Positions 30,530 to 50,245 of a stretch of 64,000 bases of DNA are shown piece after piece; within the stretch, counting starts at the first letter, position 1, and every line of letters starts with the position of its first letter. The notes under the pieces are model-generated. The model did not search any database. It was not told the DNA's origin and saw only the letters and a program-made list of their open reading frames with translations. Where the stretch lies: NCBI GenBank assembly GCA_018287875.1, contig JAGVVL010000014.1, forward strand, positions 1 to 64,000. The letters are read 5' to 3'. The position numbers and the translations under genes were made by a program. The stretch is from Nigrospora sphaerica. Lineage: Eukaryota > Ascomycota > Sordariomycetes > Amphisphaeriales > Apiosporaceae.

Positions 30530-31097
30530 TGTTGCAGGTATAGGACTTATCCTATACCGTTCTCTGTCACTACGGACTAAGCTATGCACTTAACGAGAAG
30601 CTAGTCCTTTAACCGAGCCTATCCTAAAGCTCGGGCCAGCCTACCCTGGAGCACGGGCCAGCTTACCCGCAAGCATGGCCCGCTTTACCCACAAGCGTGG
30701 CGTTCGCCACGCGGAAGCTTCTGCAAGGTTCCACGAGTTTCCACGAGTTTCTACGTGACTCCCTCGAAGCTCCCACGAGCCCCCATGAGGCTCCACAAAC
30801 CTCTATAAGGTTCCATATGCTTCTAAGCCACGTAATCACTTACGCAATCACTTACGCGTCCTCTTCCTTGTATTACTAAGAGGATAAAGGTTTAACGGGT
30901 ATAAGTAAAGGCTGAATCTCCCCTCTTCGTGTAACTAGTCTGTCCTGAAGCAAGCAAGCACACGAAATACACTCTTATTCCTCTTGAAGAGAAGTTCCTT
31001 ATCCTTCCGTGTTTCTTTATAGAAACGACCTCCGAGATCGAAAGAGCCCTTATAAAGGGGTTGCTTCCTCTTTTCGATCAAACCACCACTTCCAACA
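30530..31097 (+). repeat. Copia 5' LTR
   Basis: 568 bp, TGTTGCAGGT...CTTCCAACA. Differences from the 3' LTR include two single-base deletions in the 3' copy and a few transitions. A solo copy is at 3220-3787. Confidence 0.95.
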
Positions 31098-31112
31098 GGT
31101 TATGAGCCCGGG
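31098..31112 (+). promoter_or_regulatory. Copia primer-binding site (half-tRNA iMet type)
   Basis: Directly after the LTR, GGTTATGAGCCCGGG is complementary to the anticodon stem-loop of initiator tRNA-Met (anticodon context ...GGCTCATAACC), not to a tRNA 3' end. This fits the half-tRNA priming known for Ty5 and Drosophila copia, in which a cleaved tRNA fragment primes minus-strand synthesis. Confidence 0.75.
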
Positions 31113-31488
31113 CCGATATCTTTTCGCTTAAGATTACGCCCCTTAACCTCCCTCGTCGATTTCTTCCTCCTCTCTCGGCCGAAGCAACCTGGAAGCGACC
31201 CTAAGTCTTCCGAACCGCTTTATTCGTCTCGAAAGCCCTCGAAGCTTCCGGAAGCAACCTTAAGTCTTCCAAAGCCTTCTTCGATATTATCGAAGTCTTT
31301 AAGCCCTCGGACTCGCTTTAAGCGAATATTTCGGATAAGCTGCTTTTCGGCGTCCCGATTAGCATATAGCTGCCCCTTTATTCCTTAACCTTAGGAATTA
31401 AAGAGGTTATATTCGATACGAGGCATTTTTCGGTTCTCTTTAACCGAATAAGGGCTTATTTCGGCTACTCTCACGCCGGAAAAACAAC

Positions 31489-32370
31489 ATGGCCGACATT
31501 ATTAAGTCGGTATCGGCATGTTTAATGCCGAAATCCCACCGACTATCCGGTTCTTCAAACTGGAACACATTTAAGTCCTCCTTACTGCTTTATTTTAAAC
31601 TCTTAAAATTGAGCAGTTCTTCCTTAATACGGATAAGTATAAGGAGATTTCCGAGGAGCAGAAGACTCTAGCCTTACTTGTTATAAGGCAGAACCTTTTC
31701 GACGAGCCCCTTTCTTTAATCTTCGACGCTACGGATCCCCTTTCAGCACTAGAAACGTTAAGTGCTAGTTATGAGGGTACTGGTCCTGTTCTCCGGCAGC
31801 AGCTCTATATCGAGTTCCATTCTATTCGATACGAGCATTATAACTCGTTAACCGAGTTTATCTCTTCGTTTAAGACCTATGCGAAGAAACTAGCGAATGT
31901 CGGAGCGAAGATAGACGATATAGACTTAAAGACGGTCTTTATAGCCGCTTTATCGTCTACTTACCCTATATGGGCTGACCGGCAACGCTCCGCTTTACGA
32001 AGTAAGGAGCCGCCGTCTTTAGATTCGCTAATTAACGATATTCTCGACGAATCTAAGGCTTCCTCAGATACTTCAATGGGGAACTCTTCGTTTTATACGA
32101 AGAATAACCGTTCTAAACCCCCTAACTCGAAAGAGGGCCAAAAATCTAATAACGGGAAGAACGGAAAAGGGTTGAATAACGGGAATTCAAACCCTAAGAA
32201 CCCTAACTTTAAGGGTTCTAAGCGGAATTCTAAGGGTTCTAAGCCGAATCCTAAGAAACCGCAGGAAAAAAGTCGTCCTAACGACTCCGATTCCAACTCA
32301 GATTCCGAATCCGGAAAACAGTCCGAGTCGTTTTATAGTTACTCTTATTCAAGTAGTGACTTTAACGGCG
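31489..32370 (+). pseudogene. Copia gag (frameshifted)
   Basis: Capsid protein of the virus-like particle. ATG at 31489 (MADIIKSVSACLMPKSHRLS) opens a Ty1/Copia-type gag start with the usual L-x-G-S-x-N-W-x-x-F motif (HRLSGSSNWNTFKSSLL). A frameshift lies between about 31560 and 31608. From 31608 the frame is continuous with pol to 33131 and reads EQFFLNTDKYKEISEEQK, then KLANVGAKIDDIDLKTVF. No CCHC knuckle was found. Instead the C-terminus is a long Asn/Lys/Gly/Ser-rich basic tail (32090-32340), which may replace it for RNA binding. Confidence 0.85.
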
Positions 32371-35300
32371 TACCGAAGGACTGGTGGCTCTACGATACGG
32401 GCTCTACACAGCATATATCGAACGATAAGTCCTACTTTAAAGACTTAACTTACTGTTCCGACTTAAACCCCGTTATTACTGGAGCCGGCTTTATAAAGCC
32501 AGTAGGAAAGGGAACCGTTACCCTTCCTATAAAGAAAAAGAGCGACATTTTCTACCTTACTCTCGAGAACACGCTCTATATCCCGGATTTCCCGATTAAT
32601 CTTATCTCCGGATTAAACCACTATAAGTCCGGCGGAAAGATAAGCGGAACGGAACTTCTCTCTTCAAAAGGCGTCGTTATAGCCACGTTAAACCCCTTAA
32701 AGCGTGGTTTCTTTCTCGACGTCGCCTATAAGCCGGAACCGAATTTCGCTTATATCACAGCGAAAACCGCGCTTAAAAAAGACCTAATAGGCCAAAAGAA
32801 CGGTCTTAAAAGCCTAAAATCCAAAGACTTACCGCCGAAACTACCTGGGACCCGGACCTCAGCCACGGTACCCGAGAACGGCTCTTTAAAGTCTTTTAAG
32901 TCCGATATCTCAACGGATTTAACTCTGATTTCGACGGAGTCAACGGCTTTAAGGTCTACTTTACCTGGACTTTTCTATAGTTCAGTCGAAAGCCCCATCA
33001 AGAATCCATGGAGCTTCATATCGGAGATTCCAAGTCTCTCCTACTATACGGACACCGAATTATGGCATAAACGCCTCGGTCATCCAAGTTTCGACGCCTT
33101 AGTTAAGGCTTCAAAGTCTACAAAGGCATAGACCCTCGAAACTTAATAAACAGGACCTGAACTGCGAGGCCTGCTTATTAGGAAAGTTTACCCGACAACA
33201 AGGAAAGTCAACAGAAATCGAGCAACTTTTCCCTTAAACCGGATCTGCTTAGATACGGTTAAAATCACTCCTACGAGTTATTCGGGTTACAACTACATTA
33301 TCGTCTACACCGACGACTTTACGTCCTTTCGCTTTATAGACTTTACTAAGTCTAAGGACGAGGTGTTTGAGACGGTTAAAAACCGTTTAGAACACTTAAA
33401 ACAGCAGTTTAAATCGTATCCTTCTCTTATAAGGATCGATAACGGGACCGAATTTAACCCCGTTCAGCTCGAAAAATTCCTAAAGACTAAAGGAGTTATT
33501 TACGAGCCCTCGAACCGCTACACACCCGAACAAAACGGCATAGCGGAAAGATCTAATCGAGTTATACTCGATAAAGGTCGTACGGCAATACTAGACGCGA
33601 AAATCCCTAAATACCTATGGGAATTCGTCCTACAGTCTATAGTAAAGGTTATCAACCTTACGCCGACCTCGAAAAAGAATATAACTCCTTATCAGGAGTT
33701 CTACGACTATTTCTATCCTAATCAGGATAATACTCCCGATTTATCCTTCTTACATATTATCGGAACTCCGGTATACACCTATAAACCAAAGGAACTATTA
33801 GTTCAGTCCGATAAATTCGCATCTAAGGCTGAAAAAGGGATTCTACTCGGGTATAAGGGAAACTCGATTTATATCGTCTATATCCCTAGCCGGCCCTTTA
33901 AAAAGCGTGTTTTTCCGACCTCCCACCTTCGAGTTCTATCCGAAGACGAAGAAAATACGGAAATAGGGGTAGACTACACTCCTTCGGCCACGCTATCTGG
34001 AAACAGCACTCGGGACGAGATTTCCGATATTATCTCCGTCTCTAGTGCAAATTCCGGCCCTATTCCAAACTCGAAGGGTATCATAAACCGTCCGAAGACG
34101 TCTATCGAGGTTGTTTTACCCAATAACCTCTCCGAAAGCGAAAAGTCGACTTATAAGCGTTTCGATAACGCTTTTCCAACCGCTACCCTTTATAAAGAGC
34201 CCCGCTCCTTAAAGGAAGCCCTTCAGTCTAAGGATAAAGAAGAGTGGCTATCTGCAGTTCACACCGAACTAAAGGAAATCATAAAGAAAGGACTCTTAAA
34301 GCGGTTGATCGAGCTAAAGTTAAGAGAGAAGGACGCTCTCCTTTATCTCTAAAATGGGTCTTCAAGTTAAAGACCGACGTGACCGGAAAACCGGTTAAAT
34401 ACAAAGCTCGGCTAGTCGTTAGAGGCTTCGAACAGCAGTACGGCCTTGACTATTTCGAAACATTCGCTTCCGAACAAAACCAGCCACATGGCGAGTTTTA
34501 CTCGCCTTAGCCGCCTACTACAACTGGGAAATCGAACAGATCGATATAGTCTCCGCGTTCTTAAACGGAGAACTACTAGAAGACGTTTATATTGAGCCTA
34601 TCGAAGGCCTAGACGATCTTCTACTCGAAAACCCGGAGTTAAACACCTTTGGGTGGAAATTCGACGGTATCAGTTATTTAAGCTTTTTAAAGCTTTATAC
34701 GGACTAAAACAGAGTCCTAGGCAGTGGCAACTAAAGGTTAAAAAGGCCTTATCTACCTTAGGCTTTAAACCTCTAATCTCGGACGAGTCCACGTATTATA
34801 ACGATGAACTCCGGATGTTTATCGTTTCTTATGTTGACGATTTCCTTATATTCGGTCCGTTATTAACGGATATTAACCGAATAAAGAAAGAGATAGGAAA
34901 ACACTTTGAGGTTAAGGACTTAGGTCCTATTTCCTACTTTCTCGGCGTTCAGGTTACCCTGAGACCGAGAGAAGCGACTTATAAAGATAAACCAGTCGAC
35001 ATATATACGGCAAATCCTTGAAACCTCGAACTTATACGAGATAACGCCGTCCGATGTTCCTCTCTCTCCGAGCCTTCCGAAGAATATCGATTACACCGCT
35101 CTCAAAGACGAAAAATCGAATTCGGACACTATAAAGGAATATCAGCAGCTAATCGGCCGTCTAATGTATGCCATGACGCAGACTAGGCCCGATATCTGCT
35201 ACGCTGTGGGATTTCTAGCTCGATTTATGCAGAACCCCAATAAACAGCTCTTGAAAGCCGTTAAAGGTGTCTTTAAGTACCTAAAACGGACTGCAGACTA

Positions 35301-35794
35301 CTCTATAGTCTATAAGGGCGACACTAAGCCTACATTAGTGGGCTATTCCGATTCGGATTACGGCGGCGACTACGAGACTCGAAAGTCTACTTCGGCTACC
35401 TCTTTACCTGAATAACGGTCCTATAAGCTGGAAATCGAAAAAGCAGTCTACTATAGCCTTATCGACCACCGAAGCCGAGTTTAACGGGTTAGAACAGGCC
35501 ACCCGTGAGTCTATATGGCTTAAAAACCTCTTATTCGAGTTAGGGGTTAAAACGGCTTCGATTCCGATAAAAGGGGACAATACTTCGGCTATAAACTTAG
35601 CTTATAACCCCGAATATCACCAGCGTACCAAGCACACCGCTATACGCTACTATTTCGTCCGGCAAGAAGTCGAAAACGAGAATATATCGGTCGAATACAT
35701 CTCGACTAACGACATGCCCGCCGATGGCTTAACTAAGCCACTTCCGAAAGAGAAATTCAGTAGGTTCTTAAGCCTACTAAACTTACGCCCTTAA
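32371..35794 (+). pseudogene. Copia pol: protease, integrase, RT, RNase H
   Basis: Protease: WWLYDTGSTQHI (active-site D-T-G) near 32390. Integrase: LWHKRLGHPSF, then CEACLLGKF (zinc HHCC) near 33060-33200, a VYTDDF/IRIDNGTEF/GIAERSN catalytic triad region to about 33560, and a conserved C-terminal GILLGYKGN block. RT: VKYKARLVVRGFEQQYGLDYFETF, QIDIVSAFLNGEL and SYVDDFLIFG (catalytic YVDD) to about 34900. RNase H: MYAMTQTRPDICYAVGFLAR, YSDSDYGGD, STTEAEF and TKHTAIRYYFVRQ, ending at about 35794. Frameshifts or stops occur near 33131, 34330, 34500, 34700, 35020 and 35400. All catalytic residues remain. Confidence 0.92.
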
Positions 35795-35829
35795 GCACGC
35801 CTATTATCGTGTATTTTAACGGTATAGGT

Positions 35830-35841
35830 TAAGAGAGGGGG
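35830..35841 (+). promoter_or_regulatory. Copia polypurine tract
   Basis: TAAGAGAGGGGG immediately precedes the 3' LTR and would prime plus-strand synthesis. Confidence 0.85.
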
Positions 35842-36407
35842 TGTTGCAGGTATAGGACTTATCCTATACCGTTCTCTGTCACTACGGACTAAGCTATGCA
35901 CTTAACGAGAAGCTAGTCCTTTAACCGAGCCTATCCTAAAGCTCGGGCCAGCCTACCCTGGAGCACGGGCCAGCTTACCCGCAAGCATGGCCCGCTTTGC
36001 CCACAAGCGTGGCGTTCGCCACGCGGAAGCTTCTGCAAGGTTCCACGAGTTTCACGAGTTTCTACGTGACTCCCTGAAGCTCCCACGAGCCCCCATGAGG
36101 CTCCACAAACCTCTATAAGGTTCCATATGCTTCTAAGCCACGTAATCACTTACGCAATCACTTACGCGTCCTCTTCCTTGTATTACTAAGAGGATAAAGG
36201 TTTAACGGGTATAAGTAAAGGCTGAATCTCCCCTCTTCGTGTAACTAGTCTGTCCTGAAGCAAGCAAGCACACGAAATACACTCTTGTTCCTCTTGAAGA
36301 GAAGTTCCTTATCCTTCCGTGTTTCTTTATAGAAACGACCTCCAAGATCGAAAGAGCCCTTATAAAGGGGTTGCTTCCTCTTTTCGATCAAACCACCACT
36401 TCCAACA
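35842..36407 (+). repeat. Copia 3' LTR
   Basis: 566 bp, same ends as the 5' LTR. It is followed by the target duplication CTTCT. Confidence 0.95.
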
Positions 36408-37517: not shown

Positions 37518-37750
37518 TGTAACGGAATGATACGAATCGAACGAGGTGACTATGTGCACGCAATTCCAATGACTGGCTGGCTGTATTGACTTCAATCTGG
37601 CCGTCCCTCCGTTTGCGGGCGCGGCCAGATTCTGCATAAGGGCGCCCCGGATTAACGTGGCGCCGCTCCGCCGTTTCGGCGACCGCCCTGGCGCTTGCTT
37701 CCCGCCGGCGCGCCGACGCACCGCCGATCCGCCCGCCCGGCCCCTTTACA
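37518..37750 (-). repeat. Gypsy-4 3' LTR (left copy)
   Basis: 233 bp, plus-strand TGTAACGGAATGATACGAAT...CCCCTTTACA, matching 46688-46920. On the minus strand a purine-rich stretch (GGAATTGGGGGGCAT) adjoins it and may be the polypurine tract. Confidence 0.92.
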
Positions 37751-38221
37751 ATGCCCCCCAATTCCTGGGCCCGGTCTCCGGCGCCCGTGGAATTCCTATC
37801 GGTGGAGCGGTCTCGGGTGCGCCGCGCCGCGTGGGTCCTTGGCCCGCCACCTTGTGGTCGCCGCCCTTCGTGGGGTTGTCCTATGCGCTCGTTATGTCTG
37901 CTGGCCCGCCCGTCGGCGGCCGGTCGTTGCCTGGGCGGCGCTGCCCCGCGCTGCGTGTTTGTCTCCAGTCGCGCTCTCTGTCGCGGCGGCCTCGCCGCCT
38001 CGCCGCCTCGCTGCCTCGCTGCCCGTGTTGCTGCCTGGGGCGCCGAGGGCTCGGCTTTGTTTGTAGCTCCGTACTCCATACCAACTCCTGGGTCGGCGCC
38101 TGGTTGCAGCTTTCCTTTGTTCCCGTTCCTTGTGGCAGGCGACCTCTCCATTCCCCGTACGTCTCGTGTTTCGTGACGCTCTCTGTTCCTCATCCATTCG
38201 TTCTTCGACTGTTCGCCGACA
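37751..38221 (+). promoter_or_regulatory. Putative promoter/5' UTR of the antisense gene
   Basis: About 470 bp of C/T- and G/C-rich DNA with short GCCGCCTCGCTGCCTCG repeats (37985-38030) and a pyrimidine-rich run just before the ATG (tctgttcctcatccattcgt). Pyrimidine-rich leaders and an ACAATG start context are common in filamentous fungi. Long minus- and plus-strand ORFs here are probably GC-driven chance. Confidence 0.4.
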
Positions 38222-40287
38222 ATGCTGTACCCGATCTACTCGCGCGAGGACGCGCTTAACCGCATTCGCGAGTGGGAGGTCCTCCCCGCCTGTCACTCTG
38301 TCTTTCGTTTTGGACACTCCGGCGGCCCTTTGTCCCGGAACGCCGACGACGATCTTGTCGTTTCCTTGTGCGTCCCGCATCCTGGTCGGCGCTCTATCGG
38401 GCCTCGCTCGGCTGCCTCGGGCGTTGCTAACCCTCCCCTCTAGCCCCAATGCCTTTTGTTGCAACAGTGTCACGACCGGCGCTGTTGATCCCTCTCTGAA
38501 CTGTGAGGGTGCCGGCAAGTGCGGGATCTGCGCCATTGATCATCGCAAATGTGTCGCCGTTTGTGTTGCCCTTTGCCCGCGACTGTGTTGCGATGGCTGA
38601 CGCGTTTAGATTCCCGAGGAATTGGTCGGTGCCGGCCGCGTCCTCACCGCTGGCATCGCCCATCTTCGCGTCCTTCAATACCGCGGTACCCACATGGGCC
38701 AGGTGGGCAGTTCCAATTGGAACTGGCGATACGTCCAAGCCTATGGGTCGCTCAAGACGGTCTACCACGAGGCGGCGATGGCTTTCCGCCTATGCTGCAA
38801 TGAGGAGGACATTGCCGTCTTCCAGGAGCGCAAGGAACAGAAAAAGCGCGAAGCCGCCAACTCCCTCGCCGTTGTTGAGGCGCAGAGCCAGCGCCGGTTC
38901 GTCCAATTACAAACGGACATCCTCGCCGTGAGTTTCCCCTCCTTTCGCCGCCGCGTCGGCGTACTGGTTCTAATCGTGTTCCGGTAGGGCGCCCATGGCC
39001 AACGGGAGCCTGTCAGTGCTGAGGAGTACCAGCGGCGATACACCCTCGCCCTTCCTGTCGGCGATCGCAGTGCCGATAGCCTGTCCCGCCTTATCGCGCA
39101 CTGCGAGGAACTTTATCGCCTAACCGTCGACAACTACGACGACAAGCTGTACCGCTGGGCGCCTGGATACCATTTTCTCGCGGGCGAGGCCACATCGGAT
39201 ATCGATTGGCAGCGTCGGTTCAAACGATCGCAGAAAAAAGGTGCTGCGAGGGTTGATTCGTGGTTTGGTGTCAACCACGCCCGGCGGGAGAAACATGGTA
39301 AGAGCCGCGTTGCTCGAGCAGGTCCCGCCGCCCCTGGTCGCCGTACCCCGGTGAGTCCTCCCCGTCTTCGTTTTGACGCGACCGGTCCTTAGTTAACACT
39401 TCCGGTAGGGTAGCAAGGCGTCTGTCCGCCGATCCCATTCCGACGCACGAGTCGACTCCGCCGGGCCTTCGTCGCCCTTCACGCCAGTCCCCGCCGCGAT
39501 GCCTGGCGATGAATCGCCTTCCGACGACGAGGACTCTGACGACGACGCCTCGAGCCTGGGTGCGGACACTGACGACGATGGCGAGTACGTCCAGTCGCCG
39601 TCCGGTCGCAGCTCTCCTTCCGGCTCCAGTGCCCGTCCTGGCCCCTCCGGCCGGGGTGGCTCGGGCGCGCCTGCGCTAGAGGATCGCGACCTGCTGTCCT
39701 CTGCTGCGTCCCTGTCGGACGCGCCGATGTCCTCTGCGCCGGCCTCTCGGGTCCAGCGCTCCACTCGTGCTGCGACACCCTGGCCCTCCAGCCCTGCCTC
39801 CGGCGTCCGCTCTGCTAGCGGTGCTCCCTCCGCTAGCGGCGCCTCCTCGATGGTGGAGTGGCGGGCCGAGCGGCGGATCCATCTCACGATGATCTCCAAT
39901 ACCTGTCCTCTGCCTGAGAAGCCTTGGTCCGCGGAGGAGTATCGCGACTGCGTCGCCGCGCGCTTGGAACTGTGGCATAAGTTCGACCAGGTCCCCACGA
40001 CCGTCGCCGAGCCACCTCATTCGTCCGCTCGTGACCAGAAACTCATTGAGTTTCGCGATTTGGTTCCCCCCGCCCTTCCGAGGTTGGAGGCCACCATAAT
40101 CCTGTCGCAATGTACGACGTTTACCATACTGCCCGACGCGGTTTCGAGACCTGGCTTCGACGTCTACACCCTTGCCTTCGTCCGGCGGCTCGCTGCCGTC
40201 CCCTCTCGTCGCCGGCGAACGGCCAGCGTACTTACAGCGCCTCTCCGGGCTATGGCAAGGCGAGTACGACCCGTTCGCTTCGCCTAA
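38222..40287 (+). CDS. Antisense multi-exon gene inside Gypsy-4 (Cys-rich fungal protein), 5' part
   Basis: Model: exons 38222-38367, 38444-38558, 38610-38927, 38988-39350 and 39409-40287. The four introns (76, 51, 60 and 58 nt) start GTGCGT, GTTTGT, GTGAGT and GTGAGT, contain GCTAAC, GCTGAC, TCTAAT and GTTAAC near the 3' end, and finish in AG. Splicing keeps one open frame, removing the stops at 38441 and 38598. The product starts MLYPIYSREDALNRIREWEV. It has a Cys cluster C-C-x13-C-x5-C-x2-C-x6-C (residues about 54-82), reminiscent of fungal zinc/Cys-cluster proteins, then VGAGRVLTAGIAHLRVL and a Ser/Asp-rich acidic region (exon 5). Function unknown. It opposes gag-pol, so its introns cannot be spliced from the element's genomic RNA. 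The frame after about 40100 is uncertain. Confidence 0.7.
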
Positions 40288-41267
40288 GCGGGTAAACTTC
40301 AGCATGCCCGGCGACGGCGGTCGCGACGTTTCCTCGCTGGACAGTAGCCGCTCTGGTTCCGATGTCGTGGACGGTCTGGACTCGTGCGGCCCTTCCTCTC
40401 CCTTGAGCGCGGTCGCCGACCCAGATGCGTCCGACGGCGGCAACGCCCTGTCCGTTGGCTCCGACACCGGCGGTGACCGCTCCCCTAGCCCTGATGGCGA
40501 TGTTGACATGGTCTCGGGGGCACTGACGCGTCGGCGCAAATGCCGCCACCCGCGCAAGCTCTTGCCCCGACCGGCCCGTCCGTGGACCCACACTGGACTG
40601 CCGAGCAATGGGCGCTCGCCCGCCGACGGGCCATGAACCGCATCCTCGAGCTGTATCCTGACCCCGCTCCCCTGTCAGCGTTACCGCCTTCCGGGACGTC
40701 CTTTGGGCCCGGCACTTCAGTCTCCACTCGGCGAACCGCGAGATAGACACGGCTATGCGCTGGGATTCCCATCCCGCGCCGCCTAGTGTTCAGCACACGC
40801 GAGACACTGAGAACCTCGACGTGGCCACCATCACGCTCTCGGCGACGGCTGACGTCCTTGGTTGTGCTCCCCGAGCTGGCCATCTCTCTCTGGCTCGGCT
40901 TGCCCAGGCCGGCGGACGATCGCATGTCCTGCGCCGCTTCCCGATCGACGCTACCCGCCCCGATCCCATTGGAGCTGGGTACACACCCCGGTACGTCTCC
41001 GAGATCGTGACTAGCCTTCCGGCGGCGGCTCCTCCCCCTGCCGTTTAAGGACTGGTCCCCGGCCGCAATGGAGGAGTACTACAACAGCGCCTTCTCGTCA
41101 CTCGGCTTGCGACGGATCAACGTCCTCGGTGGCATCGCTCCGCCCGCCGTCTCGCCGTCCTCGTCGACCCGAGGTGCCAAACGTCGCCGCTCTGCCGCCG
41201 ACGACGCGGCTCACGGTCCCTCGGCTGGACCCCCTCCTTCGCGACGCCTTCGCCCGTCTCGCCGCTA
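40100..41267 (+). pseudogene. 3' part of the antisense gene, frame broken
   Basis: Protein-like text continues on the plus strand but hops between frames: MYDVYHTARRGFETWLRRLH (40110), LSGLWQGEYDPFASPKRVNF (about 40220), HWTAEQWALARRRAMNRILE (about 40590), then DVATITLSATADVL (about 40820), and finally KDWSPAAMEEYYNSAFSSLG (41050), ending with a basic KRRR segment and a stop at 41265-41267. One hop coincides with a CCCCC run near 41035. Either further introns or single-base indels explain this. It stops about 180 bp short of the convergent pol stop at 41448. Confidence 0.5.
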
Positions 41268-41447
41268 GGTCGCCCTGACGCGTCACCTAGTTTGCCGTCC
41301 CCTCATCCGCTGCGTCCTGCGCTTTGGCGGATCCTCGTCGCCCGTACGCCGCCTAGCGGACCTCCTGCGTCCTACTCTGCATGCCGCGTGCGACCTTCCA
41401 CAGCAATTGCATGGCTTAGCTCCGTGTACTTCTAGGCCCTGGCCTCG

Positions 41448-42050
41448 TTAATTGATCTGCTGCGCTTCGCGCCCCGCCACTCCGTGATTTCCTGTGCTCG
41501 GAGGGCGATCGTCGTCCCATTTACGGTGGGACCGCCGCTTACGATAGCGTGCCACGATCTTCGGCGCGTTCTCCAGGTTCGCCTCTGGCTCCCAGGTGTT
41601 ATATTCCACCGGCCAGCCCATCCATTTCACGAGGTACTCCGCCCCTCGGGCGGTCGTCCTGTGTCGGAGGATATCCTCGACCTCCCACTCCTCTTGGTCC
41701 TCCACCAGTCCTGGGAGTGCCTCATGGTCCCCGGAGGCCTTGCCAGTCCATGGCTCCAACGATGACACTGGGAACACGTCGTGTATCCGTTCGTACTGCG
41801 AGGGCAGGGCGACCCTGTAGGCCACCTTACCAATCCTCTCCGTGACCTTTACCCGAATGTACGTCGGGGCGAGCTTCGCACCGCACTTAAATCGGAACCG
41901 CTTCGTCGAGAGGCCTACCCACTGACCTGGTTGGAACTCTTGGTCCTGGTGCCTTCGGTCGTAGCCCTTTTGTTGGGCTTTCACTGCGACGTCCCAGTGT
42001 TCTCTCATACGCGCGCGGACCTCTCGGCTCTTCTGTAGCCGTTCTAACAC
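41448..42050 (-). pseudogene. Gypsy-4 integrase C-terminus with chromodomain
   Basis: A 200-codon minus-strand frame. The first half is the integrase GPF/GPY-like region (FQPGQWVGLSTKRFRFK, KVTERIGKVAYRVALP, HDVFPVSSLEPW). The second half is a complete chromodomain (EWEVEDILRHRTTARG, YLVKWMGWPVEYNTWEPEAN), which in chromoviruses targets histone-marked chromatin. It overlaps the end of the integrase frame at 42044, in another frame, so a frameshift or single indel separates them. Confidence 0.88.
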
Positions 42051-43030
42051 GCCCGCGCTCCGAAAGCGTTCTGCTTGGGGGCGAACTCCGTCATCCTCGG
42101 GTGAAATCCATACAGCGCCTCAAACGGTGACACCCCGATGGAGTCGTGGCGGCGGTTATTATAGGCGAACTCGGCTTCGTGTAGCCCGGATGCCCATGTC
42201 GCCTCGTCGCAACACGTGCGTAACCACTTCTCTAGTGTTTGGTGCGTTCTCTCTGTCTGCCCGTCCGTTTGGGGATGGTACGCCGTGCTCAGCCGGCGTT
42301 TCGTTGCCCTTGCCTCGCACCACTCTTGCCAGAACCGGCTCGTGAGTAGGGAGTCCCTATCGCTCACAATCCCGAGGGGCGTCCCGTACCGGCATTCCAC
42401 TTCCTTATACAGGATATGGGCTAACTCTGCCGCAGTTAGGGTTTTCCTCGTGGGTAGGAACAGTGCCATCTTCGTGAATCGGTCCACGATGACTAACACG
42501 GCGTCGCAGGCGTCGCCCTCGGGTCGGCAGCTGATCGGCAGCCCAGTGATGAAGTCCATGCTAATCTCTTGCCAGGGTCCCTCGGGTAGCGGTAGGGATT
42601 GGAGTAGGCCGTACGGTTTGTGCCTTGGTCTCCTTGCTCCCTGGCACTCCTGGCATGACTCTGCGTACTGTCGCACCTCCTCGGCGATCGCGGGCCAGTG
42701 GAACTTCCTCGTGAGCAGCTCTAAGGTCTTATTCGCGCCTAGGTGTCCCGCCCTGGGGTCATCGTGGTGTTGGTGGAGTAGTTGGGCCCTTAACGCTCCC
42801 TCATTAGGGATGACTAGCCTTCCTTTAAATCGGAGGGCTCCTTCCTCGTCTAGGTGGTACCCCGCAGCTTGGCCTTGCCGCGCCTTCTCCATTCGTTCCG
42901 CGATGTCCCGGTCCTGGGGTTGTAGCCCCCGAATGAGCTGGTAGAACGCCTCAGTGGGCTTATCCGCCCAAGTGGTCTCGTTTCTTGCCACGCTTCGAGC
43001 CACTGCTCTCGGGAGCACCTGTCCCCCCAC
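42044..43030 (-). pseudogene. Gypsy-4 integrase
   Basis: A 328-codon frame. The HHCC zinc domain is visible as HQHHDDPRAGHLGANKTLE followed by CQECQGARRP. The core has ISMDFITGLP (first Asp), GIVSDRDSLLTS (second Asp) and GQTERTHQTLEKW (Glu). All three catalytic residues are intact. It inserts the cDNA copy into the genome. It is part of a single pol polyprotein now cut by frameshifts at both ends. Confidence 0.9.
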
Positions 43031-43282
43031 CGGCCTCGTCGATCACTGCTCGGCGCCTCGTCGTGGGTGGCCCTCCTGGCCTTGTGCCCGGGTTACCGGG
43101 GCAAGGACCGCGTCCCCCCTGGCCACCCGCCGACCTTTTGTCTGTGTGCGTCACCATCGCCCGCACCGCCCCCACGTACGTCGCGGTCCCGACGTTTCTC
43201 GTGGTGCTGATCCTTGCCACCTGGTGTCGGACCTCGGCCGGCAGCTGGTCGACGAGTGCCAGTTTCATTGCTAGTGACGGAA

Positions 43283-45709
43283 TCACGTCGTGGTAGCTGA
43301 TCTCCCCAGCCATGTAGTCTGGTCGCCGCGATAGCGGATCCGCCGGGTTCGTGGCCCCTTCCGATATTCCATATCGAAGTCAAAATGCGAGAGCCTGTAC
43401 ACCCATCTTGCGAGGCGGCCTCGTAAGTCTCTCGCCGGTGCTTCCACGACCCCTTTCAGTGCCTGGTGGTCGGTCCAGACCGTGAACTTGGCGCTCAGCC
43501 CCTCAAGGTAGTGTCTCCAATGCTCGAGTGATTCGACAATCGCTAGCAGTTCCTTTTGGCCCGTGGCCCAGTTCAGCTCGGGCGCCGTGAGTTTCCGCGA
43601 CCAGTAGGCGACTGGCCTCCACTCGCCACCTCCTTGTTTCTGTGATAGGATGCCTGAGACTGCCCTATCACTCGCGTCTGTCTCGACCCTGCTAGTTTTC
43701 TCCGGGTCCCAGTGTCGGAGCACCGTCGCCGAAGTGAACGCGTGCTTTAGCTCTTCGAACGCCTTCTGTGCGTCCAGGGGCCACTGGAACGGGCCCTTCT
43801 TCCGGCCGGCCTCCATGCCTTTCAGTAGCGCCGTAATCGGTGCCGTGATATGCGAGTACTTCGCAATGAACTTCCTATAGAAGTTGGTGAACCCTAGGAA
43901 CACTTGGATGTCCCGGTACGACTCAGGAGGCTGCCATTCCTGCACGGCTATCACTCGTTTCGGGTCCATCTTTAAGCCTACTCGGCCGACCACGAATCCT
44001 AGGAACTCGATTTCCTCTTTAAAGAATTCGCACTTCGAGATCTTCGCAAATAGCTCGTGCTCCTTCAGCCGTTCGCACACCATTCGGAGATGCGTCGCGT
44101 GTTCCTTCGCGTCCTGCGAGTAGATGACGATGTCGTCGAGGTAAACCACGCAAATGGTGTCAATGAGCCCTGCTAATGCCTTCTGCATATAGGCCTGAAA
44201 CGTGGCGGGCGCGTTCGTGAGCCCCATGGCCATCACGTTATACTCGAAGTGGCCGTACTTCGTTCGGAACGCGGTCTTCCAGCGGTCGCCCTCTGCGATT
44301 GCGAGGCGAAAATAGGCGTCTCGTAAATCCATCTTCGAGAACACCTTCGCCGACCCCAGCTGATCCATCAGCTCGCTAATTAGCGGAAGCGGATATCGGT
44401 TCTTTACCGTGACCTTATTTAGGCCCCGGTAATCGACGCATAGTCGTAGACTGCCGTCCTTTTTTGGCACGAATAGCACGGGTGCCCCCGCCGGGCTCGT
44501 GGAGTGCCTAATGCGACCGGTTTCCAACGCCTTCGCGAGGTACTCCTCGAGCTCCTTTCGTTGCGGTTCTGAGAGGGGATAGATAGGTCCGTGTGGAGGC
44601 TGTGCGCCGGGGATGAGGTCGATCGTGTGCGGTGTCTCTCCTAAAATAGGCGGCTCCGCGGCTGCGGACTCACTAAACACGACCTCGTACTCCTTTAAAC
44701 AGGCTGGTAGCGCGACGGTCCCTATGGGCGGTTCGTCGTCAAGCCCCGGTATCGCCGACGCGTCACCTAACTCTAGCCTCGCTAGCTGGGCGATTAGCAC
44801 CGGTTCGCCTTCGGTCGCTTCGCGGGCGAACTCCTCTGGCCCCACGAACTGCATCACTCTAAACGTGAACGTGTCTGGCTTTCGTGTGTCTAAGGTAATT
44901 CCCTCCCGCCCCATGCCCGGGCGGGACAGTAGCACCTGGGCCGCGTGCTTATCTCGGCGCACGACGAAGAACACCTGCGTGAACCTCCGTACCTGCCCTT
45001 GCACGTCTTGCATCTCTATCGCCGCTTCCACGGCGCCATAGCACCGTAGCGGCTGCCCGTCGACCCCTAAAAGTCGCGGCAGAGTTATGGGGACTTTCGT
45101 AACCCAACCCCTCGTGACGGCTCGATCCGCCGTCCGCTTTGCGATCACGTTGACCTCGGCCCCCGAATCCAGGTCGATCCGAATCGGCTTCTTCGCTCGG
45201 CCGAGTTCGTCGCATAACTGGCCCGTGGTGCGCATGGCCGCGCCTAGCACCCCTGTCGCGCGGTGTGTGTCCGCTGAGTCGTCTTGCGCTCCGTCCGGCT
45301 CAGCTACACATTTCCCGCCTCGCTCGCGCTCCAGTCGGAGTCGGATCGGTACTGGGGCGTCTCTTGCTTCACCTCTGCCGCCTGGATCCGCGCGCCGGCC
45401 GCTCGTGTAGCGCCGGTGTGCGCCGCCGGGGATTGCCTGCCCGGCGGCTTGGCCGTACAATCCCGCTGGATATGGCCCCCTCGCCGCATTTATAGCAACG
45501 GACGTACTTCGGGCGGGGTCTCCTCTCGGTGGCGCCTGGGCCGAACCCCCTCGACGAACCTTCGACGCTGGTTGCACCACCGCCTGGTTCACATACCCCT
45601 GTCGGGTCCCGCTAAACTCGTGCTCGGCCCGGGGTCGCTTCCTTCCTCCCGGAGTCCCGTCGCGTGTCCCTTCGCGATCCCTTCGCTGATAAGGGAGAGG
45701 ATCTGCCAT
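43283..45709 (-). CDS. Gypsy-4 protease, reverse transcriptase and RNase H
   Basis: The longest open frame of the window (808 codons). Protease: RIDLDSGAEVNVIA (D-S-G). RT: CVDYRGLNKVTVKNRYPLP, KMDLRDAYFRLAI, TKYGHFEYNVMAMGLTNAPA and VYLDDIVIYS (catalytic YLDD). RNase H: VETDASDRAVSGILSQ, ELLAIVESLEHWRHYL and TDHQALKG. All key residues are present. It copies the element's RNA into DNA. Frameshifts lie just after 43383 toward integrase and at the gag side; a CCHC knuckle (CYKCGEGGHIQRDC) is encoded about 45495-45445 in another frame. Confidence 0.92.
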   Translation of the reverse strand: MADPLPYQRRDREGTRDGTPGGRKRPRAEHEFSGTRQGYVNQAVVQPASKVRRGGSAQAPPRGDPARSTSVAINAARGPYPAGLYGQAAGQAIPGGAHRRYTSGRRADPGGRGEARDAPVPIRLRLERERGGKCVAEPDGAQDDSADTHRATGVLGAAMRTTGQLCDELGRAKKPIRIDLDSGAEVNVIAKRTADRAVTRGWVTKVPITLPRLLGVDGQPLRCYGAVEAAIEMQDVQGQVRRFTQVFFVVRRDKHAAQVLLSRPGMGREGITLDTRKPDTFTFRVMQFVGPEEFAREATEGEPVLIAQLARLELGDASAIPGLDDEPPIGTVALPACLKEYEVVFSESAAAEPPILGETPHTIDLIPGAQPPHGPIYPLSEPQRKELEEYLAKALETGRIRHSTSPAGAPVLFVPKKDGSLRLCVDYRGLNKVTVKNRYPLPLISELMDQLGSAKVFSKMDLRDAYFRLAIAEGDRWKTAFRTKYGHFEYNVMAMGLTNAPATFQAYMQKALAGLIDTICVVYLDDIVIYSQDAKEHATHLRMVCERLKEHELFAKISKCEFFKEEIEFLGFVVGRVGLKMDPKRVIAVQEWQPPESYRDIQVFLGFTNFYRKFIAKYSHITAPITALLKGMEAGRKKGPFQWPLDAQKAFEELKHAFTSATVLRHWDPEKTSRVETDASDRAVSGILSQKQGGGEWRPVAYWSRKLTAPELNWATGQKELLAIVESLEHWRHYLEGLSAKFTVWTDHQALKGVVEAPARDLRGRLARWVYRLSHFDFDMEYRKGPRTRRIRYRGDQTTWLGRSATTT

Positions 45710-46651
45710 CGACGCTCCGCCTCGTGGGCGACCGCTTGGGCGTCGGTGATAGCAACGTTATCCCGAATGATGTCCATCCGTAGCCACGGTCGCAGCTTGA
45801 GTAGGAACTCGTGTGCGATGAGGGGCTGGCCTGCGATGCTCTCTCGAACCCGTCGCTGCCACGCGGACCACTCGTTATAGAACTGTGTCGGCGATTGGTC
45901 GGCCGTTTGCCGGATCCGTTGTAGCGCCGCCATTGACCTCTGCATATTCTGAGCCGGGTCGATGTGTTCCCGTCGAATGAACTTTAAGAAGTCTGCCCAC
46001 TTGGCCTGCTCGCTGTATTTCCCTTGCGGGTATAGATCTTCGGCGTGGGTGCGCCACTCGCTTTGCAAGGCGTAGTCCACGTTGGTGAGGGCCCATTCGA
46101 TATAGCGAGCATCCGTCTGGTCGGGTCGGCTCTCGTTTTGTTGTTCCACCGCCACGATCCAGCTTCGGATCTCCACGTGGGTCGAGGCCTCCTCTAGCTT
46201 CTTGCATGCGTAAGTCGGTGGCTTCTCGTACGTGCGCGGTTCTCCGCTCGTGCTCCGACTGGGCGGCGTTAGTCCTTGACCCCGTTGGCGGTCGGCTCGG
46301 TCCGCCGTCATCATCTCGATCATCTTCTGCTGTGTCTTCAGCAGCGCGCGGAGAAGGTCGTTCTCCCGCGTGGCGACCCGGAACAGATCGGACTCCGAGG
46401 GGTTGACATGTCGGGTCCCGGCGTTGGGCTTGGATCCGTTTCGCCGGATGGTCGCGGTTCGTCCGCGCCCGTGGGCCCTTCGTCCATTGGGAACGGGCGC
46501 CCTCCACCGTGCCCGCTCCGGTAGTCAGGGCGCCGGGGATCGCCGCGTTGCTCGGCGCGGCTGGCTCGTTGGCTCCTAACCCTAAGTTGGGGTGAGAGCT
46601 TGCTTGACCGGGCGTCGAGCTGTCGGGGCGCGATCGGGTAGCGGGTGCCAT
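45589..46651 (-). pseudogene. Gypsy-4 gag (frameshifted)
   Basis: Starts at 46651 (MAPATRSRPDSSTPGQASSH), about 36 bp inside the 5' LTR. It shifts frame twice near 46500 and 46400, then runs open as 45589-46323: KKLEEASTHVEIRSWIVAVE, QGKYSEQAKWADFLKFIRRE and SPTQFYNEWSAWQRRV are typical helical capsid segments. The gag zinc knuckle lies downstream at about 45470. It forms the virus-like particle. The frameshifts sit in GC-rich runs. Confidence 0.8.
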
Positions 46652-46687
46652 AGCCGGCTCGTTCTCGTGGTGTAGAGATTGAAGAAT

Positions 46688-46920
46688 TGTAACGGAATGA
46701 TACGAATCGAACGAGGTGACTATGTGCACGCAATTCCAATGACTGGCTGGCTGTATTGACTTCAATCTGGCCGTCCCTCCGTTTGCGGGCGCGGCCAGAT
46801 TCTGCATAAGGGCGCCCCGGATTAACGTGGCGCCGCTCCGCCGTTTCGGCGACCGCCCTGGCGCTTGCTTCCCGCCGGCGCGCCGACGCACCGCCGATCC
46901 GCCCGCCCGGCCCCTTTACA
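46688..46920 (-). repeat. Gypsy-4 5' LTR (right copy)
   Basis: 233 bp with the same termini as 37518-37750. Such identity indicates recent insertion or gene conversion. Confidence 0.92.
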
Positions 46921-47384
46921 GCTCGGCTATTGCTAAACACATACTTTATAATAGTCACTCAATCTCTATTAAGAGGGTTGTTAATGAGGACCTCATTAAG
47001 CTTAGAAGGTTTATTAATTAAGGGAGCGTCTTTAATACCAACTATTGTTCTTATCTCGTTAGCGTTATAAGTGTAAGTAAGAGAAATAGCTAATATAAGG
47101 GGGTTATCTAGCTAATTAAAAAACTTAACGATATTAATGGAACATATAGCGTTAGCACGTCTTTAATTAAACTGTACGCTTTATAAAGTCTTTAACTTTC
47201 AATGTCTCGTAGAAATCTCCAGACTTAGTGTGTTTTAAGGGTTTAAGGGTCCCTTAAAGCTTAAAATAGCCTTATAGCAAATAAAAGAAATCTTAAGTGT
47301 GGAGGAGTGTAGCCTACCTTAGTTTATAACTTAACTTAGCATATTTAAAAAGCGCTTAATAGTTAAGGATATGTTTTAACGCTT
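46921..47384 (-). other. AT-rich relic downstream of Gypsy-4
   Basis: RIP-like AT-rich sequence, minus-strand frames full of stops, no motif recognised. It may be the decayed body of the transposon whose N-terminal domain follows at 47385-47537. Confidence 0.35.
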
Positions 47385-47537
47385 TTAAGAGGCCCCGCGG
47401 CGTAAAACACCGCGGTCTATATGGCGCTGTAGGGTGGTTCTAGATACTCCATGTCTGATAGCCGCGCCTGGCATAGATAGGCCATTTCGGTGGGCTCTAG
47501 CGGCTGCACGCAGCTTCTTTTCGTGGTCGGACAACAT
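47385..47537 (-). pseudogene. Helix-turn-helix N-terminus of a DNA transposase (relic)
   Basis: A 50-codon minus-strand frame starting MLSDHEKKLRAAARAHRNG and continuing LSMPGAAIRHGVSRTTLQRH, a psq/CENP-B-type helix-turn-helix like that of pogo-class transposases. It ends in TAA at 47385, and decayed AT-rich DNA follows. The fungal pogo copy at 11840 has the same KLSCRQAAAIYNISRTTLQRR layout but a different sequence, so this is another family. Confidence 0.6.
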
Positions 47538-48385
47538 GTTATAAGATGCGCAATTAAAAGAGGAGTAGAATAGTATATTGTCGCAATATGAGGCTATTCA
47601 CGTGGCTTAGCCTCTCCTGTCAGGTCACGTGGCTCCTCTTCACATGCCAGGATTCACATGGTGACAGGGGTCCTGAGCTACTATATGTACTACTGCACCT
47701 ACAGACAGATTTCCTTTGTTTCCTTCTAAGGGATAACTTGAACCTCGCTTTCCACGATCTCTGCAGTGCGACATATATTCTATTTACTTTTACGAGCGCT
47801 GGTTACCGTGCTATTTATTAGTGACTATGTTAGAGTTGTTGAGGTTGGTGATACTTTTTAGGTGGCCCATTAAGGGGGTGGCCCGAGTAGAGGCGGTCTA
47901 ACTTATATAGCCGCACTAAAATAAGAATTAAAATTCTCCACGATATAATAAGAATTAAAGAAATAAAGAGAGTATTGCTATAATCTATAGGTAGTTAAAT
48001 CTTAGTATATCGTATTAATTTAATAATTTTTTAAAGTGGGAGAATTTTCATTTGTTTACATTAGAAACTTAGTTTAGGTGGCTATTTTACTGTGGTGGCT
48101 GTTTTGCTAGGAGGACCGGCTGGTACATGCCTATCCTTATGGATAACGGTATGTGAGGCGTCTGGTTTGTAGTGGCCATGGCAGGTGACTGTTGCCCGTG
48201 GGAATTTTCCGTGCTATGTATGCCGCGCTATATGGCGCGGTAGGGGGGGGGCGGGCTAGCATACTTAACACGGTCAGATTCATCGTCGCGGGGGCTAGGG
48301 GCAGCATGATGACCGCGTCGGTGCTCGCTTCTGGGGCGGTTCGTTGGCAATTTCATCAGGGTCCGTACCTGTGATTGTGGCGGGC
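47538..48385. other. Intergenic interval without recognised gene
   Basis: AT-rich in the centre (47920-48060). GTGGCCCATTAAGGGGGTGGCCCG at 47861 and GTGGCTATTTTACTGTGGTGGC at 48078 are tandem GTGGC-type motifs that resemble transposon subterminal repeats, but no inverted partner was found. 48235-48300 is a GC-rich patch with a G8 run. Confidence 0.4.
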
Positions 48386-48815
48386 TTAATGAGTTCGCTT
48401 AGATAGCATTGAGGCGGCAACACAAGGTCGGGAACCCCGGTAGCGCCACATTTCTGTGCGTCTAGCACGACAGAAGGCCATGGGCGGGCGAGGCGGCAAA
48501 GCCGGCGTCGCGTGCTTAATATCCATGGCGCCTTGTCCTAGGCTAAACGTCGTTCCTTGCGCGACGGGCACGTCGCGGGCCAGATTCGAGACACTGTAAG
48601 GCATGGGCCTGTTCCCCTTTTGACTGTCTTATGAACTATGGTGTCCGGCCCAGGCTGTCAGGCCATCTGTTTGGACAAAGCCGTGGGGTGACATCAGCGG
48701 CCAACGTTTTTGTCACCTGGAGAAAAGGCACTAGGATGAGATGGTATCTTCAATACTCATCGTCGAAAACTCTACGAAACCTGCCATGGAAATCGGAGAA
48801 TCGCTTCTCGACAGC

Positions 48816-49244
48816 CTACTCAGATCGGTCCTTGATGCCTTCCTCGATACTTTGTAGTATGTGTAACCGCATTGTCATTTTGGAACGAAATGGATAGGAA
48901 GTGGTCTCGTGAGTAACGGCATCGGCAGGCCGTCGGCGTCGACATCGGCTTCGGGTTGGACGAAATTCCAGACGGCGCGGACCGAGAAAAAGGTAAGCGC
49001 ATCGGTTTGTCGCCGCGGCTCGGGAGATGGGCCATGGGCCTTGGTGCTTTGTGGAGGCCATTGAAGCGGAAGCGCACAACTTGGGGTGCTCTGGAGTAAC
49101 CTGTATACCGTCAGTTTTTATGAGTGATTGTACCGTATCGTCTGATAGCGCGTCCTGTGGTAGGAAAGGGTGGGAATGGATAGCCGAGAGATTGATGAAC
49201 AAAACAACGAGGCATAGAACAGAGGTAACCAAAACACGCAGCAT
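48816..49244 (-). pseudogene. Possible secreted-protein gene relic
   Basis: Starting at 49244, the frame reads MLRVLVTSVLCLVVLFINLS followed by AIHS, a good N-terminal signal peptide, then 119 residues with basic runs (RCRRRRPADAV). The second half looks unlike a natural protein, while another minus frame (48820-49077) is more protein-like (RDHFLSISFQNDNAV), suggesting a frameshift near 49060. A further minus frame at 48386-48604 (YSVSNLARDVPVAQGTTFSL) may be its 3' part. I do not recognise the family. A small secreted protein or effector relic is possible. Confidence 0.35.
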
Positions 49245-49740
49245 TCTTGTCACTAGAGCCCGGCGGAAACCAAGGCGCCTATTTATTCGCGAATAGCCAC
49301 GCTGGCTGGGTCGCGACGAGCCATACGCCATGGAATTGACTGCGTGGCTGGCAACAAGCACTCTGCTAGGCGCCTGAAAGGGGCTGTGCATAGAGCTGCA
49401 TACATCTCAGTTGGCTGCAAAATGTGTTCGTATCAGCGCTCACCGGAAGGCAGATTTTGGTCAGCCTCGGAGGCGCCAGGGAGGCTGTGCAGCCGCGACC
49501 CCGCACTTGACCAACAATACCGACCAAAGGGCTGACAGCAGTTCCTCGTCCCAATCGTCCCCCTCTCTCTCGGTTTGAGCTTGCATAACATGACTGCGAT
49601 CCCTCCTACATTCCACGTTCTGTCTCCCTGAATACCATGGATTGGAACAGACTTCAACCGGAGACGAGTAATTGTTACGCTCGAATTACCTGCACAACAT
49701 ACCGACACCGTCCTATCATCAGATAATCGCTGCCGTCGCC

Positions 49741-50236
49741 ATGCCCAACAGCCGTGATGGCCGTAAGAGTGTCCGCTTTAGCATAGGGTCCGAGCAGTTG
49801 AGCGGCTCGAGACGCAGCCGTTGGGATGATGAATGTGATTCTGGAATTGGCTCGTCGTCAAGTGAACAAACCTCCCAGAGACGAGGGAGATCTGATTGGG
49901 GTTAACAGCTGCAGACCGCCTCCACCAGAGCAACGACCCCGACGCTTTACGAGAGGCCTACGTCACCTTGCTTGCAGAAAACCAGAACCTCAAGGGCGCT
50001 ATTTGCCAACATGAAGCATCTCTGAGCACATCCCATCGGGCGATCAAGCAACTGGAGGAACACGCGACCGGCCTTTTTACGCAGATAGAAGAACTCCAGG
50101 CCAAGAACAACGACTACAAAGTCGAAAGGGCGCGCCTAGCCACTAAGAGAGATGAACTCGAGGCCGAGAACAACTTATACAATGAAGAAAGGGCGCGCCT
50201 AGCTACCAAGAGAGCTGACCTCGAGGCCATGATCGA
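49741..50236 (+). pseudogene. N-terminal coiled-coil part of a large Pfs-locus gene (cut by inversion)
   Basis: ATG at 49741 (MPNSRDGRKSVRFSIGSEQL), a Ser-rich acidic patch (DDECDSGIGSSSS), then a likely 53-nt intron 49862-49914 (GTGAAC...GGTTAACAGCTGCAG), whose removal joins the frames. After it come NDPDALREAYVTLLAENQN and a coiled coil with tandem ERARLATKRDELEAENN and ERARLATKRADLEA repeats. Similar N-termini are found in large fungal proteins of unknown function linked to Pfs/NLR-like loci. At about 50237 homology flips to the other strand, and the frame continues only by chance to a stop at 50459. Confidence 0.65.
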
Positions 50237-50245
50237 CTCGAGGTC
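50217..50245. repeat. 9-bp inverted repeat at the inversion junction
   Basis: GACCTCGAG (50217-50225) and CTCGAGGTC (50237-50245) form a perfect inverted repeat around an 11-nt spacer. On the plus strand it encodes the coiled-coil DLE; on the minus strand it encodes DLE of the other gene part. It marks the left breakpoint of the proposed inversion. Confidence 0.7.

What the first reader, a model, noticed from the sequence alone, without database searches (positions are those of the whole stretch)
37751..41267. Intron-containing antisense gene carried by an LTR retrotransposon between chromodomain and 3' LTR
Seen: Gypsy-4 LTRs lie at 37518 and 46688; gag-pol is on the minus strand and stops at 41448; the remaining 3.6 kb before the 3' LTR reads as protein on the plus strand, and four consecutive fungal-type introns restore one frame (exons 38222-38367, 38444-38558, 38610-38927, 38988-39350, 39409-). 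Known: introns in sense orientation are lost during retrotransposition, whereas antisense introns are not spliced from genomic RNA. Inference: the gene is cargo whose orientation protects its introns, and its Cys-cluster protein may serve the element or affect the host. Extra antisense ORFs are known in some plant Ty3 elements; a multi-intron fungal one with this product would be new.
Basis: partly seen in the sequence, partly recalled or inferred. Interest (0 to 1): 0.88.

Follow-up and report, generated by a model that had tools for sequence, protein, structure and literature searches.

The report
Intron-bearing antisense gene in fungal retrotransposon
A fungal Ty3/Gypsy "jumping gene" carries, on its opposite strand, an extra five-exon gene that is present in all 20 copies found in this genome and has kept its introns through at least a dozen jumps; backward genes at this spot are already known, but one with several intact introns and signs of being kept by natural selection is unusual.

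Summary
A strict search returns exactly the four introns (0 of 200 shuffles reach the same coding length). The insert is family-wide: 20 of 20 places with the whole 2-kb 3' part of pol carry it. Of 16 copies checked, 12 have perfect 5-bp target duplications, and all 20 copies keep four introns, so antisense introns survived at least 12 insertions.

A divergent fragment (85%) shows purifying selection on exons 3-4: 48 of 69 exon differences at third codon positions, Ka/Ks 0.09, gaps only in introns. RIP-mutated copy L020 reads one 935-codon frame with 22 RIP-type stops. The other 19 copies have frame breaks, mostly in homopolymers and mostly variable, but four gap columns are shared by all 19; assembly noise is likely, not shown. 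Older RIP-degraded copies carry the LTR-leader-gene block.

It is an antisense accessory gene (aORF-3R) of a chromovirus, a known kind, in fungi too (Boty/brtn). New here: the multi-intron structure, its survival through transposition, and a protein without detected database relatives. Function is inferred: a nuclear regulator of the element is likeliest. Expression is untested.

The parts
37518..37750 (-). 3' LTR of the minus-strand element (the antisense gene starts beside it)
   Evidence: 233 nt, 100% identical to 46688-46920; 37 of the 40 scored LTR matches in the genome (50 candidates) have the full score
46688..46920 (-). 5' LTR
41448..46651 (-). gag-pol (RT, RNase H, integrase, chromodomain); frames interrupted in this copy; no protease profile matched in the frames scanned
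   Evidence: Pfam RVT_1 3.3e-37, RT_RNaseH, Integrase_H2C2 8.2e-18 and rve 1.3e-8, Chromo 8.5e-19, SH3_Tf2-1; ORFs; start of gag read from the sequence, no Pfam match in the gag frame
37751..38221 (+). leader of the antisense gene; presumed promoter and 5' UTR
   Evidence: Inferred from position; found beside the LTR in older copies L022, L024 and L025; no RNA structure beyond chance (z -0.87)
38222..38367 (+). antisense gene exon 1 (ATG start)
38368..38443 (+). intron 1, 76 nt, GTGCGT...CTAAC...TAG
   Evidence: GT...TAG in 20 of 20 copies
38444..38558 (+). exon 2, Cys cluster
   Evidence: translation
38559..38609 (+). intron 2, 51 nt
   Evidence: 20 of 20 copies
38610..38927 (+). exon 3; 36% identical relative with splice-like borders at the same places at L023
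38928..38987 (+). intron 3, 60 nt
   Evidence: 20 of 20 copies; also present in the L021 fragment
38988..39350 (+). exon 4, under purifying selection
   Evidence: Ka/Ks 0.09 against L021, end of exon 3 and exon 4 together
39351..39408 (+). intron 4, 58 nt
   Evidence: 20 of 20 copies; also in L021
39409..41268 (+). exon 5: Ser-rich acidic region, basic C-terminus; own frame of this copy stops at 40287, continuous in L020 to 41268 apart from RIP-type stops

Best explanation
This is a resident antisense accessory gene (an 'aORF-3R') of a Ty3/Gypsy chromovirus family in a RIP-active fungus, probably a filamentous ascomycete. It lies between the chromodomain end of pol and the 3' LTR, has its own leader, and is read convergently to gag-pol. 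Shown: five exons and four spliceosomal-type introns in the sequence; presence in all 20 copies found; introns intact after at least 12 separate insertions; protein-level purifying selection on the end of exon 3 and exon 4. Established knowledge: an intron antisense to the genomic RNA is not recognised in that RNA, so it is copied back into DNA intact. Inferred: a promoter in 37751-38221 makes a plus-strand mRNA from the integrated DNA; it is spliced and gives a protein of about 935 residues with a Cys cluster near the N-terminus, a probably helical middle, a long acidic Ser-rich stretch and a basic C-terminus. The likeliest role (about 35% on its own) is a nuclear regulator of the element's expression or spread, as suggested for Grande GENE23 and Retand TRP28 proteins.
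For: Intron model recovered exactly and beyond shuffles. 20 of 20 full matches to the 3' part of pol carry the insert beside them. 5-bp TSDs, all different, in 12 of 16 copies checked (chance p about 1e-33), all with four introns. Ks 0.635, Ka 0.057, third-position excess p 8.6e-10, gap columns only in introns. RIP-mutated copy L020 keeps one frame of 935 codons; its 22 early stops all stand where the window has CAA, CAG, TGG or CGA. Old copies L022 and L024 show LTR + leader + the 5' part or most of the gene in the same order. Transversion distances place L024 (4.9%) further from the window than L021 (2.5%), consistent with the gene already being in the element while selection acted.
Against: No expression data of any kind. 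In none of the 20 copies is the whole coding sequence free of breaks: 19 have single-base length differences and L020 has RIP stops. Four of the 24 exon gap columns are shared by all 19 copies against L020, and two gap columns are not in homopolymers, so not all breaks need be assembly noise. The selection test rests on one decayed 600-bp fragment with two in-frame stops, covers only the end of exon 3 and exon 4, exons there are not less diverged overall than introns (14.9% against 18.6% and 10.3%), and one minus-strand frame also gives a low ratio (0.15). In L024 introns have fewer transversions (13 of 228) than coding positions (116 of 1577). No known domain supports a function.
Confidence: 0.75

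Rival explanations
1. Passive cargo: a host gene was captured once in antisense orientation, hitchhikes with a successful element and serves neither. The selection signal comes from its earlier life as a host gene, and the gene is now decaying.
For: Fragments related to exons 3-4 lie at places without a match to this family's LTR and without a convincing pol match nearby (L023, L026, L027); retrotransposons do capture genes (PMC7264820, passages). The near-identical copies are too young to show selection, and none has an unbroken frame.
Against: Old RIP-degraded copies already carry the gene, and L024 appears more distant than the L021 pair that shows constraint. No intact host gene was found in this genome; L023 has stops after exon 3.
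Confidence: 0.22
2. The transcript, not the protein, matters: antisense RNA forms dsRNA with the genomic RNA and limits copy number or triggers silencing.
For: Such roles are discussed for antisense transcripts of LTR elements (PMC7264820 and PMC12786077, passages). The gene is convergent with gag-pol with about 180 nt between them.
Against: An RNA role does not predict third-position substitutions or gaps confined to introns, nor a frame kept across four introns.
Confidence: 0.08
3. A separate transposon nested in one ancestral element, now fixed in the family by amplification.
For: A TIR element in the same genome carries a 600-bp piece of the same gene (L021).
Against: No pair of repeats of 25 nt or more flanks 37751-41447; matches between the L021 TIR element and the element copies cover only its inside, 161-761 of 1134; the block occurs in older copies too.
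Confidence: 0.06
4. Chance open frame in GC-rich DNA; no gene.
For: GC is about 61-66% here, which lengthens chance frames; frames overlap on both strands.
Against: 0 of 200 shuffles, minus strand 434 nt; codon-position pattern in L021; shared exon 3 borders with L023.
Confidence: 0.02

Closest known systems
Boty-like elements of Botrytis cinerea (and Sclerotinia sclerotiorum) with the antisense gene brtn (Zhao et al. 2011)
   Same: Fungal element with gag-pol and chromodomain, and an extra antisense gene between pol and 3' LTR (PMC7264820 figure legend and passage, PMC4227169 passage, PMC8365987 passages).
   Different: The original paper is not held, so introns and protein of brtn could not be compared. 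No relative of the present protein was found in a database whose sources include nr and UniRef, so homology is not supported; the length limits of that search leave a short BRTN possible.
Plant Retand/Tat elements (Retand, Grande gene23, RIRE2)
   [quoted passage not shown] role unknown; nuclear or DNA-binding role suggested (PMC11963269, passages; PMC7264820, passages).
   Different: Non-chromovirus plant elements (Retand); the typical TRP28 domain (PF04195) is not matched here; the word intron does not occur in the main text of either paper.
HTLV-1 HBZ and related antisense retroviral genes
   Same: Antisense regulatory gene at the 3' end of a retroelement; named as analogues in PMC11963269, and the antisense promoter in the HTLV 3' LTR in PMC7264820 (passages).
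   Different: Analogy only; no sequence comparison made.
Penelope elements and intron-containing genes in Adineta vaga
   Same: Introns survive retrotransposition; the authors note that an antisense template is compatible with intron retention (PMC3846280, passages).
   Different: Different retroelement class; a host gene mobilised in trans rather than a resident element gene.

Membership tests
Ty3/Gypsy chromovirus | RT-RNase H before integrase, chromodomain at the pol C-terminus | tested here: met
   Pfam RVT_1, RT_RNaseH, Chromo, SH3_Tf2-1, Integrase_H2C2 and rve in the frame between them
Ty3/Gypsy chromovirus | LTR pair with 5-bp target duplication | tested here: met
   12 of 16 copies checked; not in 4 of them, nor at the window copy and the tandem locus, whose flanks look recombined; L020 not checked
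aORF-3R (antisense gene between pol and 3' LTR) | Antisense reading frame between pol and 3' LTR | tested here: met
   in no copy complete without a break
aORF-3R (antisense gene between pol and 3' LTR) | Present in most or all copies of the family | tested here: met
   20 of 20 full matches to the 3' part of pol
aORF-3R (antisense gene between pol and 3' LTR) | Transcribed from its own promoter | not testable with these tools
   no RNA data
Boty brtn | Sequence relation to BRTN | tested here: inconclusive
   no database relative at E <= 10 among 7992 scored candidates; BRTN itself not identified as present, paper not held
Retand TRP28 protein | PF04195 domain | tested here: not met
   Pfam scan of the first 723 aa: 0 families at E <= 10; of the rest of exon 5 only window 40662-41048 was scanned
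Zn2Cys6 fungal regulator | PF00172 zinc cluster (accession recalled) | tested here: not met
   no Pfam match; Cys spacing lacks the first CxxC (read from the translation)
Captured host gene | Intact host orthologue in the same genome | tested here: not met
   Outside the element copies only fragments: L021, L023, L026, L027

The most novel reading that the evidence does not exclude
The element lineage uses its antisense introns as a device: the accessory protein can be made only from the spliced plus-strand transcript of integrated DNA and never from genomic RNA, so the regulator reports integrated copies, and selection has kept both the introns and the roughly 935-residue protein of a previously undescribed family.
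Probability: 0.12. Interest if true: 0.85.

Novelty: new variant of a known kind. Interest (0 to 1): 0.58.

Why it matters
Antisense accessory genes of LTR retrotransposons are known, but their roles are open, and it is hard to show that they are kept for their protein. Here one genome offers many young copies with target duplications, a RIP-mutated copy that records the frame, and a divergent fragment with a clear coding signature. Together they show that a retrotransposon can carry a multi-intron gene in antisense through repeated reverse transcription. That weakens the rule of thumb that an intron excludes retrotransposition, and it gives a fungal case in which to ask what such genes do.

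Tried and rejected
Nested element: looked for repeats at the borders of the insert and for places without it; none. Chance frame: rejected. Intact host orthologue: the weak match at L028 lies in a sugar-transporter gene (Sugar_tr 6.6e-130), so it is chance; L026 and L027 are short matches of 60 and 27 residues; L023 has stops after exon 3. Domain and relative searches led nowhere: Pfam, solved structures (best E 0.03), protein database (control with RT found 7837 of 7979 scored), viral contigs. Structure predictions of exon 3 (mean pLDDT 66, all helical, two sequences) and exon 4 (46.9) are too uncertain to search with. RNA fold of the leader: not beyond shuffles. The bacterial promoter scan does not apply to a fungus. 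Rfam: none at gathering score; tRNAs: none. Organism: not identified; RIP and the nearest named fungal RT relatives (Gaeumannomyces tritici 67%, Colletotrichum tabaci 65%) point to filamentous ascomycetes.

Full report
What is there. Between two identical 233-nt LTRs (37518-37750 and 46688-46920) lies a minus-strand Ty3/Gypsy element with RT and RNase H, integrase and a C-terminal chromodomain. Its last reading frame ends at 41448. The remaining 3.7 kb before the 3' LTR holds a 471-nt leader and a plus-strand gene of five exons (38222 to 41268) with four introns of 76, 51, 60 and 58 nt.

Is it more than chance? The plus strand has 5 candidate introns by these rules and the minus strand none. 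The rules were written after seeing the four introns, so the comparison with shuffles and the other strand is the test, not the fit itself.

It belongs to the element. The own genome (51.6 Mb, 33 contigs) has 22 matches to the gene: 19 near-identical full-length, one full-length at 93%, one partial at 85% and one partial at 71%. The 3' part of pol (2003 nt) has 26 matches: 20 full-length, each with the gene beside it, and 6 short ones of 58 or 119 nt at 73-81%, not examined further. So 20 of 20 places with the whole 3' part of pol carry the gene; the tool calls such counts lower bounds. The window's contig C6 is a second assembly of a stretch of C5 (window 46921-50500 equals C5:138135-141713), where two copies stand in tandem and share an LTR; by my count the 19 near-identical copies occupy 17 loci.

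The introns survive transposition. I compared the target flanks of 16 copies: 12 have perfect 5-bp duplications, all of different sequence, and 4 do not. The window copy and the tandem locus have none either, and L020 was not checked. All 20 copies keep the four introns with GT at the start and TAG at the end. Each of the 12 is therefore best read as an insertion made with the introns in place. That an antisense intron escapes splicing from the genomic RNA is established knowledge; the same argument is made for Penelope elements in PMC3846280 (passages). The window copy has unequal flanks (GTATC / GCTCG), the tandem locus on C5 has the same pair, and L012 on C5 has the reciprocal pair, as expected from recombination between two copies.

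The reading frame. In the window copy the frame from the ATG runs 606 codons, and two other copies reach 723; others stop earlier, down to 66. In the exons the 19 near-identical copies differ at 7 substitution columns and 24 columns hold gaps; 22 of the gap columns lie in runs of 3 or more of one base. Most gap columns differ from copy to copy, and gag-pol of the window copy is interrupted too. But four of the columns are gapped in all 19 copies against L020: either a systematic miscall of long runs or a real difference. L020, 93.8% identical and with 215 C-to-T or G-to-A changes among 240 substitutions, reads as one frame of 935 codons to the stop aligned at 41266-41268; its 22 earlier stops all stand where RIP-type changes explain them. 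The simplest reading is one long exon 5 with homopolymer noise in the assembly of near-identical repeats; this is likely, not shown. No copy read here has the complete frame without any break.

Selection. A 600-bp fragment at C7:3362251-3362851 (L021) is 85% identical from the end of exon 3 to the start of exon 5. Of 69 exon differences, 48 fall on third codon positions, 12 on first and 9 on second; Ks 0.635, Ka 0.057, ratio 0.09 (third-position excess p 8.6e-10). The other two plus frames give 2.5 and 2.0; the minus frames give 1.5, 0.15 and 3.2. There are no gaps in exons and three gap columns in introns. Overall divergence is not lower in exons (14.9%) than in introns (18.6% and 10.3%). The fragment carries two in-frame stops, so it is itself decayed, and it lies in a 1.13-kb element with 60-bp inverted repeats. 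Older, strongly RIP-mutated copies show the same order: L022 has LTR, leader and the gene up to the start of exon 3, L024 has LTR, leader and the gene up to about window 40464, and L025 has LTR and leader with scrambled pieces. In L024, transversions are rarer at second codon positions (27 of 525) than at first and third (89 of 1052), p 0.018, and rarer in coding sequence than in the leader, p 0.039, but introns have as few as coding sequence (13 of 228). In the shorter stretch shared with L021 the L024-specific transversions show no clear codon pattern. L024 is further from the window copy (4.9% transversions) than L021 is (2.5%). That is consistent with, but does not prove, that the constraint acted while the gene was in the element: L024's branch may be lengthened by decay.

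Relatives. Exon 3 has a 36% identical relative at C18 (L023) with splice-like borders at the same two places, but the region after it has stops and a repeated TIR transposon lies beside it. Short matches lie at L026 and L027. No relative was found in the protein database (723 aa: none at E <= 10 among 7992 candidates; exon 4: none at E <= 1 among 21), while the RT of the same element had 7837 hits among 7979 scored, including named ascomycete proteins at 65-67% identity. That search is word-based and limited by length, so a relative annotated in pieces may be missed. Pfam and solved structures gave nothing usable.

How it most likely works. From sequence, the product has a Cys cluster in exon 2, a middle predicted helical at low confidence, a Ser-rich acidic stretch and a basic C-terminus. 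With its own leader beside the 3' LTR and convergent orientation, it resembles the antisense genes that other authors regard as possible regulators: Grande GENE23 (nuclear, own promoter) and the Retand TRP28 proteins (PMC7264820 and PMC11963269, passages). I take a nuclear regulator of the element as likeliest, at about 35%; the claim that it is a real, resident, intron-bearing antisense gene is much firmer.

What is known. [quoted passage not shown]). The original brtn paper is not held, so I do not know whether brtn has introns. 'LTR Retrotransposons in Fungi' (PMC3248453) holds neither 'antisense' nor 'intron' in its main text. I therefore rate it a new variant of a known kind.

Noticed in passing
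L021:2341-3474 (C7:3362091-3363224): A 1.13-kb element with 60-bp inverted repeats (98%) holds a 600-bp piece of the antisense gene with introns 3 and 4; 19 other places among the scored matches share only about 110 nt at its end (40 of 80 candidates scored): it looks like a gene-fragment-capturing DNA transposon family.
   Followed up: partly
window 37518-46920 and C5:119567-138134: The window's contig duplicates part of contig C5, where the same locus is LTR-internal-LTR-internal-LTR; the number of tandem copies differs between the two contigs.
   Followed up: partly
window copy and L012 (C5:264334-273735): Swapped target flanks (GTATC/GCTCG and the reciprocal) on oppositely oriented copies suggest an inversion between them. 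L016 and L017 on C10 also lack duplications and share one flank, TTATT.
   Followed up: no
C13:758874-759106 (L046): An LTR identical to the others with no partner in the list and no matching 5-bp flanks, probably a solo LTR.
   Followed up: no
window 30530-36375: A copia-type LTR element with long, nearly identical repeats at its ends.
   Followed up: no
window 16579-18594: A 672-aa frame with a reverse transcriptase domain outside the Gypsy element.
   Followed up: no
window 53853-54992 and 60304-61020: Frames matching the phosphorylase superfamily and an FAD oxidoreductase, in a GC-richer part of the window.
   Followed up: no
L023:5431-7358 (C18): An element with 48-nt inverted repeats lies beside the exon 3 relative; its end is repeated at more than 20 places in the genome.
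   Followed up: no
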